Positions 49,030 to 53,698 of a stretch of DNA of 64,000 nt are shown piece by piece. The position numbers were made by a program, and so were the translations under genes. The stretch is from Candidatus Omnitrophota bacterium (GTDB lineage: Bacteria > Hinthialibacterota > Hinthialibacteria > Hinthialibacterales > Hinthialibacteraceae): positions 1 to 64,000 of the forward strand of contig JABLXU010000018.1 of assembly GCA_013177805.1 (NCBI GenBank). The letters run 5' to 3'. The notes under the pieces are model-generated. The model saw only the letters and a list, made by a program, of their open reading frames with translations, was not told the origin of the DNA and made no database searches. The number at the start of each line of letters is the position of its first letter. Within the stretch, counting starts at the first letter, position 1.

Positions 49030-49780
49030 TTACCCCACTCCGCCCAGCCAAAAAATCAGCCCGCACGCGCCGGATGTGGTGATTTGGATCGTCAAATTGT
49101 CCAGGCAGTGAAACGACACCGCTTCGACCAGTGTGGTGATCATGGCCAGGATTAGGGAAGCAAGCAGCACAAAGGACCAGGCGGCGTTGTATCCCAGGGA
49201 TAACAGGATCACACAGCCGCACAGGGACGCCAGAAATACTGCCCCGCTGCCCTCGATACTGCGGCGTGTGACCATACCCCGTAAGGTGGGAACCCGGTAG
49301 GTATGCTTCCCCCATCGAGTTCCCACGGGTTCGCCGGCGGCATCGCCCCATCCGGTAGTGATGTATCCCACTACCGCGAATTGGCCAAACAACAAGTTGC
49401 TGAGCATGCCGCCCAGAGCTGTCATCAAAAAGGGGACAAGGATACAAAATTTTTCAAATGGATGATCATTTGGCCGGGCAACTGCCCGAAACAGCCGGCT
49501 TTGATTTCCACGCCAAACCGCGCACAGGACGACCACTCCCACCGCCGCCCCGAAAACTTGAACGGCCCCAAATCCTTTCATCAAGCCTAAAATCCCGGCT
49601 AAGGTGAAGATGACGAAATGAAATATTTTTCCGGGAATACCCCACCGGCCACTGCCACCGTTCCCGGCAGTATGCGGCTGACCATCCCGCGAGAACTTCC
49701 GTAATTAATCCGGGGGGAAAAATCAGGATCCAATCCCAGAGGGATGGAAACGTCCAGAAGGAGAAATCCGGTAGCCTCAT
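49030..49780 (-). CDS. Phytol/dolichol kinase-like (COG0170) membrane enzyme, interrupted by a one-base frameshift
   Basis: From 49584 the frame holds the CTP-dependent polyprenol kinase signature: GYITTGWGDAAGEPVGTRWGKHTY, then RRSIEGSGAVF, among about six membrane helices. No ATG lies upstream in that frame. In the neighbouring frame an ATG at 49780 starts MRLPDFSFWTFPSLWDWILIF ... WQWPVGYSRK. Removing one T from the T5 run at 49626-49630 joins YSRK to IFHFVIFTLAGILG, restoring the family's RK-x-x-H motif and a protein of about 235-250 aa. So either the gene is frameshifted in the cell or the homopolymer was mis-assembled. The restored start overlaps the stop of the upstream gene by 4 bp. 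These enzymes phosphorylate isoprenoid alcohols. Confidence 0.72.
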
Positions 49781-50589
49781 AGCGGGAAAAATAGGTTTCC
49801 TCTTTTTTCTATGGAAGTGGGGGAGGTAACAGACGTGTCTGGATTGGATAACATCTGTTGAGTCGAATCCCAATCCCCGGCAATGATCGAAGTTTGTTCC
49901 TCCTTGTTGCCGTTGTCCGCCCGCAACCAGGAGGCATAATCCCGGCAGTCGTTTTGGTCATAGGAAAACAGCCGCGCCCGGATCCCTGCGATGGCCAGCG
50001 CCATGCGGAACGGTTCGAAAGAATAGCGGCAGATCACGAACAATCCCTGGGTAAATGGATTCGTTTTTAATGAGGGTAAAATCAAGTCATGCAGGATGTC
50101 CCGCGCGGAGGTCATAATATAAAAAACGTAACCCGCCGACAGGGATAGAAGGCCTATTTCCTTGATCACACAGGCCTGGCACGAAGCCGGGATTTCCCTG
50201 GAGGCTCTATGCGGGTCCGGTCTGCGGTGAAGGTTCTGCTCCAAAAAATAACAGTCATGATTGCTTCTACCCGATACGCAAGGAGGACTCAGAGATTTCA
50301 GGCAAAACCCCACGCCCAGGACCGGTTGGCCTCTGCCTCGATCATCCGCGTTTCCATCTGTTGCTTGATGGAACACCGGAAGACCTTCACCGGGTGAATT
50401 CTCATCCGCGGGGGCATCTATTTCTGAGTGCTGGTAGTACTGGATTCCCCGCCAGGTCCGCACCGGATGCCGCAGGAGCACGGATTTTATGAAATCCCGC
50501 CCGTATTCCCGCCGGAGGCTGCGGAAGGAAAAATCCCAGATCCGGATATTCAGAAAACGGACGGCGTCGAACCATTCCAGCCATCTCAT
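49777..50589 (-). CDS. Cysteine-containing protein of unknown function, DUF116-like C-terminal half
   Basis: The product is 270 aa without signal peptide. The N-terminus is aromatic and basic (MRWLEWFDAVRFLNIRIWDFSFRSLRREYGRD). The centre has several cysteines, including SCQACVIKEIG, and the C-terminal half (SLSAGYVFYIMTSARDILHDL, ICRYSFEPFRMALAIAGIRARLF, DQNDCRDY) resembles DUF116 proteins, which share a CxxC ... GY..YI ... C ... DGC order. That match is by eye only and weak. GGGAGG lies 11 bp before the start. Its stop overlaps the start of the polyprenol-kinase-like gene by 4 bp, so the two probably work together. Confidence 0.6.
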   Translation of the reverse strand: MRWLEWFDAVRFLNIRIWDFSFRSLRREYGRDFIKSVLLRHPVRTWRGIQYYQHSEIDAPADENSPGEGLPVFHQATDGNADDRGRGQPVLGVGFCLKSLSPPCVSGRSNHDCYFLEQNLHRRPDPHRASREIPASCQACVIKEIGLLSLSAGYVFYIMTSARDILHDLILPSLKTNPFTQGLFVICRYSFEPFRMALAIAGIRARLFSYDQNDCRDYASWLRADNGNKEEQTSIIAGDWDSTQQMLSNPDTSVTSPTSIEKRGNLFFPL

Positions 50590-50904
50590 GGGACTTATGG
50601 CCTCCCTGGGAATTCATGAATCTTTCTAGACATTGAAAACAAAGTACTTTATATTATAAAGAAAAGGAATTCAAGTATCCCCGCCAAGGAAAAGGAGAAA
50701 CGCAACAAGCGATCTACGGATGAAACGTAATTTGTTGAACGATAATTTCCGATGAGCTAACGGTGCGAGGGAAGCCGTCCGGAAAAAACCACCGGCAATC
50801 CGGCGAATTGTTCCCCGTAAACTTGGGGGATGGGGAAAGCCATGATACAATGTCTCATCACGTGGTTTTGTACTGTCTAAAGAAGAAAGGCCGATCCATT
50901 TGGA
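50590..50904. other. 315-bp divergent intergenic region
   Basis: This region separates the DUF116-like gene (minus) and the GNAT-BMC operon (plus). It contains an AT-rich palindrome CTTTATA-T-TATAAAG near 50647-50661 and an extended -10 element at 50843-50851. No gene is seen. Confidence 0.6.
50843..50851 (+). promoter_or_regulatory. Extended -10 promoter element of the GNAT-BMC operon
   Basis: TGATACAAT at 50843-50851 differs by one base from the elements before gatB and the FliK-like gene. Transcription would start near 50858, giving a leader of about 47 nt. Confidence 0.4.
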
Positions 50905-51453
50905 ATGAACGGGTTCCGCAAAGCGCGTGTGGAGGACGTCCGGCGCATCAAACAACTGATCGACAATCACATGCAAGAAGGTTTCATGCTTCCCCGCCCT
51001 CTGAGCGAGTTGTATGAAAACCTGCGGGATTTTTATGTGTGGGAAGAAGACGGCGTTATCCACGGCAATGTCGGCCTGCACATCGTCTGGGAAAACCTGG
51101 CGGAAGTGAAATCGCTGGTGGTTGATCATCACGGCCGGGGCCGGGGCATCGGGAAACAACTTGTCAACCTGTGCCTCGAGGAAGCACGCCAATTGCACAT
51201 CCAAAAAGTGTTCGCCCTCACCCAGATTCCCGATTTCTTCGTGAAGATGGGATTCCAAATTCTTGACAAGGCCCAGTTGCCCCATAAAGTATGGGCCGAG
51301 TGCATCAAGTGTCACAAGTATCCCAGTTGCGATGAGATCGCCGTAGGGATCACCCTCCTGGAAACGCCGCTCCGGTCAATCCAGGAACCGGAATTATTGG
51401 CTGGAGTCTTTCCGACGTTGGCTTCGAAAGCGGCCGGGAATTGCGTGAAATGA
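50905..51453 (+). CDS. GNAT N-acetyltransferase, N-acetylglutamate-synthase-like
   Basis: The product is 182 aa. It has the GNAT fold: FRKARVEDVRRIKQLIDNHMQEG, a central WEEDGVIHGNVGLHIVWENLAEVKSLVVDHHGRGRGIGKQLV with the acetyl-CoA pyrophosphate loop (GRGRGIG), and the ArgA-type ending FALTQIPDFFVKMGFQILDKAQLPHKVWAECIKCHKYPSCDEIAV. Such stand-alone proteins act as N-acetylglutamate synthases in some bacteria. The three BMC vertex genes start 9 bp after its stop on the same strand, so it is the first gene of their operon. No clear ribosome site precedes the ATG (only TTGGA). Confidence 0.85.
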   Translation: MNGFRKARVEDVRRIKQLIDNHMQEGFMLPRPLSELYENLRDFYVWEEDGVIHGNVGLHIVWENLAEVKSLVVDHHGRGRGIGKQLVNLCLEEARQLHIQKVFALTQIPDFFVKMGFQILDKAQLPHKVWAECIKCHKYPSCDEIAVGITLLETPLRSIQEPELLAGVFPTLASKAAGNCVK

Positions 51454-51462
51454 GGAGACCTT

Positions 51463-51789
51463 ATGTTTTTGGCTAAAGTGGTGGGGACCGTGGTGGCGAC
51501 CCAAAAAGATCCCAAGCTGGCGGGGCTCAAACTGTTGCTTGTTCAGAATCTGACTCTGGACCTGGAGTTGACTAAAAGTTTCGTGGTGGCCGCCGACGCG
51601 GTGGGAGCGGGGACCGGTGAAGTGGTGGTGTGCGCCACCGGCTCCTCCGCCCGATTGACAGAAGTGACACACAATCTGCCGGTGGACGCGGTGATCATGG
51701 CTATTGTCGATTCCCTTGAAGTCGGCGGCCGGATCACGTACAACAAAATGAACGATGAAAAGCCCGTGGCGGCCGGTCCGGTATCGTAA
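51463..51789 (+). CDS. Bacterial microcompartment vertex protein 1 (BMC-P, EutN/CcmL family)
   Basis: The product is 108 aa. It shows the full EutN/CcmL pattern: [53 protein letters not shown], then [18 protein letters not shown]. These proteins form pentamers that cap the vertices of the icosahedral protein shell. The ribosome site GAGGAGA is 7 bp before the ATG. It is the first of three consecutive BMC-P genes. It keeps the canonical AVGAGTGE turn that shapes the pentamer, and its C-terminal tail is the longest of the three. Confidence 0.94.
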
Positions 51790-51792
51790 TCC

Positions 51793-52071
51793 ATGAATAT
51801 CGCAACGGTAATCGGATCTCTTTGGGCGACCCAGAAACATCCTAGTTTCAACGGGATGAAATTCTGCGTGATTCAGCCATTGGATCAACACCGCCGGCCG
51901 GTGGGCAGCCCCATTATCGCCGTGGACCCGGATAACCGGTGCGGGCGCGGGGAAACCGTCTTTTACGTGGATGGCGGAGACGCCGCCACGGTCAAAGAAA
52001 ACCACTCCATGCCTTCGGATGCTACCATAGTCGGCATCATTGACAGCATGTCCACGGATAACCACACATGA
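51793..52071 (+). CDS. Bacterial microcompartment vertex protein 2 (BMC-P, diverged)
   Basis: The product is 92 aa, EutN/CcmL family: MNIATVIGSLWATQKHPSFNGMKFCVIQPLD, then PIIAVDPDNRCGRGETVFYVDGGDAATV and MPSDATIVGIIDSM. The AVGAGTGE motif of the paralogues is replaced by DNRCGRGE, with Cys and Arg, so the pentamer core or pore is chemically different. It follows the first vertex gene by 3 bp and overlaps the third by 4 bp (ATGA), so all three are made from one message. No strong ribosome site precedes it, and coupling is likely. Confidence 0.92.
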   Translation: MNIATVIGSLWATQKHPSFNGMKFCVIQPLDQHRRPVGSPIIAVDPDNRCGRGETVFYVDGGDAATVKENHSMPSDATIVGIIDSMSTDNHT

Positions 52072-52373
52072 GACTCGCGCGGGTTGTGGGAAATGTCGTT
52101 TCCACGTTGAAGCATGAATCGTACGAGGCGCGGTCATTGCTGCTGGTCGAACCGATTCATCCGGGAGGCGAACCAGCCGGTCCGGCAACCGTAGCCGTGG
52201 ACTACGTTGGCGCGGGAACCGGTGAAGTGGTGCTGATGGGCGCCGCGCCAGGGGCCGCGAAACTAGTCTTTGGAATCCCAATCGCCCCGATCAAGGAAAT
52301 GGTCATGGGGATCGTGGACGAAGTCGAACTCCATGGCCAAGTGGTTCTCCGCGCCTCAGAAGAGAACGCCTAA
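52068..52373 (+). CDS. Bacterial microcompartment vertex protein 3 (BMC-P, EutN/CcmL family)
   Basis: The product is 101 aa: [57 protein letters not shown], then PIKEMVMGIVDEVEL. It again has the canonical VGAGTGE turn and a short C-terminal tail. Its start overlaps the second vertex gene by 4 bp. It is the last gene of the GNAT-BMC-P operon; a convergent acetyltransferase gene follows after 78 bp. No hexameric BMC-H or BMC-T shell gene and no encapsulated enzyme is in the window. Confidence 0.94.
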   Translation: MRLARVVGNVVSTLKHESYEARSLLLVEPIHPGGEPAGPATVAVDYVGAGTGEVVLMGAAPGAAKLVFGIPIAPIKEMVMGIVDEVELHGQVVLRASEENA

Positions 52374-52451: not shown

Positions 52452-53573
52452 TCACACATACCCAATCCCATACCACACCAGGGGAACGGGAAACGTCCGG
52501 TTTAGTACCTCATATAATTTCGAGTCTTTTGATACTTTGGAGGCCAGGAAATCCTCTCCCGCCCGGCCGAAGAATAGCAAGGCCAGTTCTCCGCCATGGG
52601 CCAGTTCGATTTTCTCGCTACCCAAAGCGATTTCCATGCGTTGATCTTCCGCCTCGATCTGTAGTTTCTCCAGGCAGGTTTCTCCGATCCGTTCGGCCAG
52701 GAAAGGGCGCGCCCGTTCCAGGAACCGGCGGGCGTGAATGACCAGCACCGTTCCGTCAAACCGGCGGTATTCTTGAATCCGGGAATGCCAGGCCAGCGGG
52801 AGCAGACTCATCGCAGAAGGAATATAAGTCAAGGAATTCACGCCATACCGTTCCATCCACCATGCCGCCGCGTGTTCCAAGGCTGCCGGATGCCCCGCCC
52901 AATCCAAAAGCATCAGGATGTCCGCGCGGTGATGGACGATGCCACAACCAACCGGGTTCCTTTCGTCCCGCACCATCCACCAATCTGTGGGTTTATCCAT
53001 CACCCATTTTGACTGAAACAACGCTTCCAAGTCTTCCCGGGGAAGCAAGTATCGGGTGGGCAAGGTGGCCCACAAGGCCGTCATATCCGGGAGATCGGAC
53101 ACTCGCATTTCGGCCACTGCAAGCCGGTTCGATAATTGGGCCTCACCGGTTCCGATCTGAACCACGGGATAGCAGCCGCAATCCACCGCGTGCATGCGCC
53201 GGTATACACCCAAGTCGCCCGAAATCAGCATGATATCCGCACCCTGGGCGACGCTGCGCTTGACCGCGTCTTCCATCAGAATGGAGGCAAATCCCTGGCC
53301 CCGGGCCTCCGGATGGGTGGCCACCGCCCCGATACCCGCTACCCACGTGGGGATTCCCCCCAGCACCACCGGACGGACAGAAACCGCCACGTGAGAGACA
53401 ATTTTACCGTGTTGTTTGATCACCCGGATGTTTTCGAGGTTGTTCATCCCCACATGCCGGGCATATTCGCGGCCCATATCTCCCCCCTGGGGGCGAAAGA
53501 CCTGATTCAACAAAGCGATCAGCTCAGGCAATTCTGGCGCGGTGATGGAGACGGGACCTTCGTAGTCAGGCAT
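52452..53573 (-). CDS. Eis-like acetyltransferase: two GNAT-type domains plus SCP2-like C-terminus
   Basis: The product is 373 aa from ATG 53573. The N-terminal GNAT domain holds IPTWVAGIGAVATHPEARGQGFASILMEDAVKRS, with the acetyl-CoA loop ARGQGFA. A second, more diverged GNAT-like domain follows (WWMVRDERNPVGCGIVHHR, AWWMERYGVNSLTYI), then a sterol-carrier-like domain (DQRMEIALGSEKIELAHGGELALLFFGRAG). This three-part layout is that of Eis-family acetyltransferases, which modify amines on small molecules or proteins. The substrate is unknown. AAGAAGG precedes the chosen start; an open extension to 53687 is basic and unlike the family. It is convergent with the BMC-P operon. Confidence 0.85.
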   Translation of the reverse strand: MPDYEGPVSITAPELPELIALLNQVFRPQGGDMGREYARHVGMNNLENIRVIKQHGKIVSHVAVSVRPVVLGGIPTWVAGIGAVATHPEARGQGFASILMEDAVKRSVAQGADIMLISGDLGVYRRMHAVDCGCYPVVQIGTGEAQLSNRLAVAEMRVSDLPDMTALWATLPTRYLLPREDLEALFQSKWVMDKPTDWWMVRDERNPVGCGIVHHRADILMLLDWAGHPAALEHAAAWWMERYGVNSLTYIPSAMSLLPLAWHSRIQEYRRFDGTVLVIHARRFLERARPFLAERIGETCLEKLQIEAEDQRMEIALGSEKIELAHGGELALLFFGRAGEDFLASKVSKDSKLYEVLNRTFPVPLVWYGIGYV

Positions 53574-53644
53574 AAACGGAACCTTCTTTCTACCGAGGGA
53601 TACAACAATGGATGATTTCTTACAAAATTCTCGAAGAATAAACA

Positions 53645-53680
53645 GAAAAGGGGGCAAGATCCGAAGATCCTGCCCCCGAG
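53645..53680 (-). terminator. Very strong Rho-independent terminator with UUCG tetraloop
   Basis: Read on the minus strand: GGGGGCAGGATC, loop TTCG, GATCTTGCCCCC, then TTTTCTG. The 12-bp stem has one G-U pair. C(UUCG)G is the ultra-stable tetraloop class. It starts about 21 bp after the stop of the secreted surface-protein gene. Confidence 0.93.
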
Positions 53681-53698
53681 ATTCCAAGCTAGACTTTG

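What the first reader, a model, noticed from the sequence alone, without database searches (positions are those of the whole stretch)
50905..52373. Operon of three paralogous BMC vertex proteins led by an N-acetylglutamate-synthase-like GNAT, without shell hexamers
Three consecutive EutN/CcmL-family genes, one 3 bp apart and one overlapping by 4 bp, follow a GNAT gene by 9 bp. Vertex proteins are needed in only 60 copies per shell, so a dedicated three-gene satellite operon without any hexamer or enzyme gene is unusual. The second paralogue has replaced the canonical VGAGTGE turn with a DNRCGRGE version that adds Cys and Arg. This suggests vertices of different chemistry, or mixed pentamers that tune shell permeability. 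The role of a GNAT enzyme in such an operon is not described to my knowledge.
Basis: partly seen in the sequence, partly recalled or inferred. Interest (0 to 1): 0.75.

Follow-up and report, generated by a model that had tools for sequence, protein, structure and literature searches.

The report
Shell-vertex gene triplet behind an acetyltransferase
Three genes for the corner pieces of a bacterial protein organelle sit behind what looks like an ordinary amino-acid acetyltransferase gene, while the rest of the organelle is encoded at three other places in the genome; the vertex triplet is a known pattern, and only its lasting link to the acetyltransferase in one obscure phylum appears new.

Summary
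A 182-aa GNAT gene and three BMC-P genes lie head to tail at 50905-52373, with gaps of 9, 3 and -4 bp. The genome is not hexamer-free. Two BMC-H genes and one two-domain BMC-T gene lie on three other contigs, one beside PduL, a flavoprotein-like protein and an aldehyde dehydrogenase, another beside a PduS/RnfC-like protein. These three BMC-P are the genome's only ones. The layout matches the published 'FRAG' microcompartments: shell genes scattered over several loci, with a BMC-P triplet. A tree puts the three paralogues with first-, second- and third-position vertex proteins of many phyla, so they are the ancient triplet and not a local duplication. The 'DNRCGRGE' turn is not special: Cys occurs in 3 of 10 orthologues, and Sumerlaeota and Chloroflexota also have the longer turn. 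The part that seems undescribed is the GNAT link. All 10 BMC-P-bearing genomes of this small phylum have the GNAT directly before BMC-P1 (-4 to 27 bp) while flanking genes turn over; none of 48 multi-BMC-P loci outside the phylum has it. The GNAT is a short N-acetylglutamate-synthase-like enzyme, lacks an encapsulation peptide and persists in relatives without microcompartments. Best reading: vertex genes ride on a housekeeping arginine-pathway transcript.

The parts
50905..51453 (+). GNAT acetyltransferase, short N-acetylglutamate-synthase-like (NCBIfam PRK07757), 182 aa, with the conserved CxxCx5C motif C133-C136-C142
51463..51789 (+). BMC-P1, 108 aa; closest solved protein is the Haliangium ochraceum shell pentamer (5v74, E 2.6e-28); groups with first-position triplet members
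51793..52071 (+). BMC-P2, 92 aa; second-position triplet member; modelled fold matches CcmL, GrpN and EutN
51931..51954 (+). turn D47-N-R-C-G-R-G-E54 of BMC-P2, one residue longer than the VGAGTGE type; Cys not conserved
52068..52373 (+). BMC-P3, 101 aa; third-position triplet member; overlaps P2 by 4 bp
50627..50655 (+). possible sigma-70-like promoter (TAGACA-17-TATATT), no better than chance in number of hits
   Evidence: 3 sites found, shuffles 1.3 +/- 1.2

Best explanation
The operon supplies the pentameric vertices of a dispersed, FRAG-like metabolosome. The three BMC-P are the three ancient vertex classes of the BMC-P triplet. They would cap a shell whose hexamers (BMC-H1, BMC-H2) and trimer (BMC-T) are encoded at three other loci and whose cargo (aldehyde dehydrogenase, PduL phosphotransacylase and a flavoprotein-like protein) carries similar N-terminal encapsulation peptides. 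The leading GNAT is most likely a short-form N-acetylglutamate synthase of arginine biosynthesis, not cargo. The vertex genes probably use its transcript, which would give the steady low supply needed for a component used in 60 copies per shell. Shown by sequence: the genes, the dispersed shell and enzyme set, the triplet classes, and phylum-wide conservation of the GNAT-P1 order. Inferred: co-transcription, the NAGS activity, and the low-dose rationale.
For: PF03319 is found only here in the genome; BMC-H on C20 and C30 and BMC-T on C25. PduL, AldDh, PduS-like and BMC domains confirmed by Pfam; the flavoprotein assignment is weak (E 0.0031, below cut-off). The core loci are conserved in relatives; shared EP-like N-termini on three cargo proteins. 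Tree: P1, P2 and P3 group with 1st-, 2nd- and 3rd-position BMC-P of many phyla. Published FRAG and triplet description. GNAT: PRK07757 over cut-off, all 13 orthologues hit PRK07757 and the NAGS models; best PDB match is annotated amino-acid acetyltransferase (5yge, E 6.6e-20); it is the only match of its kind in each genome; ArgB over cut-off in 13 of 14 genomes and ArgJ in 12 of 14; the GNAT persists without BMC genes in G011-G013. Gaps of -4 to 27 bp before P1 in 10 of 10 genomes. Elsewhere BMC-P pairs also sit in apparent housekeeping units: after deoB in 4 loci and before an RpoD-like sigma gene in 4 loci.
Against: The GNAT-P1 link survives while other neighbours change between families. 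In genus g7 it even outlasts the link to P3, which moved away. This is stronger than simple hitchhiking predicts. ArgJ is present in most genomes, so NAGS would be only a primer of the pathway. No promoter or transcript data; the promoter scan is at chance level.
Confidence: 0.62

Rival explanations
1. The GNAT is a working part of the microcompartment system, for example using acetyl-CoA made by the aldehyde dehydrogenase to acetylate an amine or amino acid, or modifying shell proteins.
For: GNAT-P1 adjacency in 10 of 10 BMC-P-bearing genomes across three families, against turnover of other neighbours.
Against: No encapsulation-peptide-like stretch in the GNAT (scores equal to shuffles, while the cargo proteins score 24-28 bits, though those helped train the profile). 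Kept in three genomes without any BMC or BMC-P gene. No GNAT in 48 multi-BMC-P loci of other phyla. The Cys motif is shared with the BMC-less orthologues.
Confidence: 0.18
2. The adjacency is inherited gene order with no function: the triplet landed behind the GNAT once, in the ancestor, and has not yet been separated.
For: All carriers belong to one phylum. Nothing similar found outside it.
Against: Nearly all other neighbours changed between families while the GNAT-P1 spacing stayed at -4 to 27 bp.
Confidence: 0.17
3. The three BMC-P build vertices of different chemistry or mixed pentamers that tune permeability, with BMC-P2's Cys/Arg turn as the special feature.
For: Three distinct, conserved classes. 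The published survey also suggests an extra role for the paralogues.
Against: Cys in 3 of 10 and Arg in 4 of 10 orthologues; the longer turn also occurs in Sumerlaeota and Chloroflexota with other residues. No evidence on mixed pentamers either way.
Confidence: 0.12

Closest known systems
FRAG-type bacterial microcompartments (Sutter et al. 2021, PMC8217296)
   Same: Shell genes at several genomic places (four here), BMC-P triplet, AldDh near one shell gene, no obvious signature enzyme
   Different: No GNAT is mentioned in the paper's main text; its supplementary locus tables could not be read, and the type's own HMMs were not available
BMC-P triplet of many BMC types (PMC8217296; HO, ACI and FRAG named there)
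   Same: Three classes in the order P1-P2-P3; P1 closest to the solved Haliangium pentamer 5v74
   Different: Here the triplet has no hexamer beside it and is led by a GNAT
[quoted passage not shown]
   Same: Vertex genes away from the hexamers, beside one enzyme gene
   Different: The enzyme is an aldolase there (compare Myxococcota loci L079 and L142) and a GNAT here
Short N-acetylglutamate synthases: M. tuberculosis ArgA (my reading of 5yge/5yo2) and the GNAT domain of ArgH fusions (PRK12308)
   Same: Sequence over the full GNAT domain
   Different: Those are not linked to microcompartment genes (from my own knowledge)

Membership tests
BMC-P / EutN-CcmL family (PF03319) | Profile match above the curated cut-off over the full domain | tested here: met
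   101.9, 89.3 and 77.5 bits against 25; modelled P2 fold matches CcmL, EutN and GrpN
BMC-P triplet | Three paralogues drawn from three distinct major clades | tested here: met
   The tree separates 1st-, 2nd- and 3rd-position members across phyla (P2 clade SH-aLRT 97, P1 and P3 groups 94, many inner forks open)
FRAG-type BMC | Shell genes scattered over several loci | tested here: met
   Contigs C10, C20, C25 and C30
FRAG-type BMC | AldDh present but no obvious signature enzyme | tested here: inconclusive
   AldDh and PduL beside BMC-H1; one class II aldolase and one DeoC-family match elsewhere, no EP evident on the aldolase
FRAG-type BMC | Assignment by the type-specific shell HMMs of the catalogue | not testable with these tools
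   These HMMs are not among the libraries
N-acetylglutamate synthase (short form) | Match to a curated family above cut-off | tested here: inconclusive
   Over cut-off for PRK07757, named only 'N-acetyltransferase'; below cut-off for the amino-acid N-acetyltransferase models
N-acetylglutamate synthase (short form) | Acetylation of glutamate by acetyl-CoA | not testable with these tools
   Needs an enzyme assay
BMC cargo (GNAT as encapsulated enzyme) | Encapsulation peptide at a terminus | tested here: not met
   EP profile built from the genome's cargo scores the GNATs like shuffled sequence

The most novel reading that the evidence does not exclude
The GNAT is functionally tied to the metabolosome: selection keeps it on the vertex transcript because its product or activity (using compartment-derived acetyl-CoA, or acetylating an amine substrate or a shell part) is needed with the organelle. 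This would be the first acetyltransferase with a role in a microcompartment that I know of.
Probability: 0.15. Interest if true: 0.6.

Novelty: new variant of a known kind. Interest (0 to 1): 0.33.

Why it matters
FRAG microcompartments have no known function, and why genomes keep three vertex proteins is open. Here the vertex triplet is tied to one biosynthetic enzyme across a phylum, and in Ignavibacteriota, Calditrichota and their kin similar pairs sit between deoB and an RpoD-like gene. This suggests a testable rule: vertex supply is set by housekeeping transcription, apart from the inducible shell and enzyme loci. If only hitchhiking is at work, it is a tidy example of a known kind.

Tried and rejected
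Hexamer-free system: rejected, BMC-H and BMC-T exist elsewhere. Recent tandem duplication of one vertex gene: rejected by the tree. Special Cys/Arg vertex chemistry: not conserved. GNAT as cargo: no EP. Class II aldolase (L154) as signature enzyme: one per genome in the window's family and in g7, but no EP seen at its ends and it also occurs in BMC-less relatives. DeoC-family match on C53 is weak-to-moderate (55.6 bits) and was not pursued. Rfam: no RNA family in the window. Literature: no paper found linking a GNAT to BMC-P, though subscription papers and supplements were out of reach.

Full report
Observation. Pfam confirms EutN_CcmL on all three vertex proteins and a GNAT domain on the first. 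The modelled fold of P2 (mean pLDDT 77.6) matches CcmL, GrpN and EutN.

The rest of the shell. The genome (5.58 Mb, 93 contigs) has exactly three PF03319 matches, all here. It has PF00936 on three other contigs: BMC-H1 on C20, BMC-H2 on C30, and a two-domain BMC-T on C25. The C20 locus runs BMC-H1, PduL, a flavoprotein-like protein (weak Pfam match), AldDh; the C25 locus pairs a PduS/RnfC-like protein with BMC-T. These loci recur in the relatives whose loci were compared. AldDh, PduL and the flavoprotein-like protein share short amphipathic N-termini typical of encapsulation peptides. So the operon is a satellite of a dispersed metabolosome and not an orphan.

Relatives. The phylum has 14 held genomes. 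Ten have BMC-P, and in all ten the GNAT lies directly before BMC-P1 at -4 to 27 bp. Six genomes of family f1 and G010 (family f4) have the full GNAT-P1-P2-P3 set. In genus g7 (family f2) P3 lies elsewhere: found in G008 and G009, not found in G007. In G008 the contig ends inside the gene after P1, and P2 is on another contig. Between families the GNAT and BMC-P are almost the only shared genes in the compared flanks; exceptions are weak pilin and sigma-factor matches and neighbours shared within f1 or within g7. Three genomes with neither BMC nor BMC-P keep the GNAT as a single gene. G001 has a BMC-T but neither BMC-P nor this GNAT.

Outside the phylum. A scan with P2 returned 80 loci. Fifty hold two or more BMC-P in the held stretch; two of these are the phylum's own. 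None of the other 48 has the GNAT, and 19 of the 48 have no BMC-H or BMC-T in the held flanks (some flanks are cut short by contig ends). Sumerlaeota have the same P1-P2-P3 order without the GNAT. In the tree, P2 falls in a 58-row clade of second-position proteins from many phyla (SH-aLRT 97), P3 with third-position and P1 with first-position proteins (94 each); inner forks are often open, as 98 columns carry 154 rows.

The turn. P2's turn is one residue longer than the VGAGTGE type. Orthologues read NRCG, NQVG, NNVG, NRAG and SQVG; Cys is in 3 of 10. Chloroflexota (ATRQAGLGE) and Sumerlaeota (STSEHGEGE) share the length. The Cys/Arg argument therefore falls.

The GNAT. It passes PRK07757; all 13 orthologues also hit the amino-acid N-acetyltransferase models (for the window's own protein these hits lie below the models' cut-offs). 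The closest solved proteins are annotated amino-acid acetyltransferases (5yge, 5yo2). PRK12308, an argininosuccinate lyase model with a C-terminal GNAT part, matches too. ArgB passes its cut-off in 13 of 14 genomes and ArgJ in 12 of 14; the GNAT search gave no second, long-ArgA-like match in any genome. NAGS is thus the best guess but untested.

Mechanism. Best reading: vertex proteins for a FRAG-like shell are made from a housekeeping arginine-pathway transcript. A parallel supports it: BMC-P pairs follow deoB in L074, L086, L096 and L143 (in L086 with one small gene between) and precede an RpoD-like sigma gene in L074, L083, L086 and L092. deoB could instead belong to a sugar-phosphate pathway of that compartment, so the parallel is suggestive only.

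Known or new. FRAG microcompartments and BMC-P triplets are published (PMC8217296). The GNAT-led form is not mentioned in the main text of that catalogue or of the 2014 taxonomy. I rate it a new variant of a known kind, of modest interest.

Noticed in passing
L074, L086, L096, L143 (deoB upstream); L074, L083, L086, L092 (RpoD-like sigma gene downstream): BMC-P pairs without hexamers sit after phosphopentomutase deoB and/or before an RpoD-like sigma factor gene in Ignavibacteriota, Calditrichota, Bacteroidota and others: a recurrent, apparently undescribed satellite layout.
   Followed up: partly
L046:1529-4570 and L047:7034-10039, with arrays near L047:11400-12750: A Cas9-like protein of about 1000 aa with what look like cas1-type genes and a CRISPR-like repeat array lies right after BMC-P2 in genomes G008 and G009.
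   Followed up: no
window 52452-53687 (-): A second, unrelated GNAT (Acetyltransf_9, 411 aa) faces the operon from downstream; a homologue sits there in G002 too.
   Followed up: no
window 49030-50589 (-): Overlapping ORFs in different frames suggest a broken or frameshifted membrane-protein gene just upstream of the operon.
   Followed up: no
L043:3150-3308 and L047:6358-6514: A spacer of 157-159 bp with short repeated GC-rich units separates P1 and P2 in genus g7, where other families have -4 to 41 bp.
   Followed up: no
L061:8121-8717 (G001): A lone BMC-T in a genome (84% complete) with no BMC-H, BMC-P or GNAT match.
   Followed up: no
L008:10806-11705: Conserved protein of about 290 aa with an encapsulation-like N-terminus and only a weak flavoprotein match, between PduL and AldDh in all five genomes compared.
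   Followed up: partly
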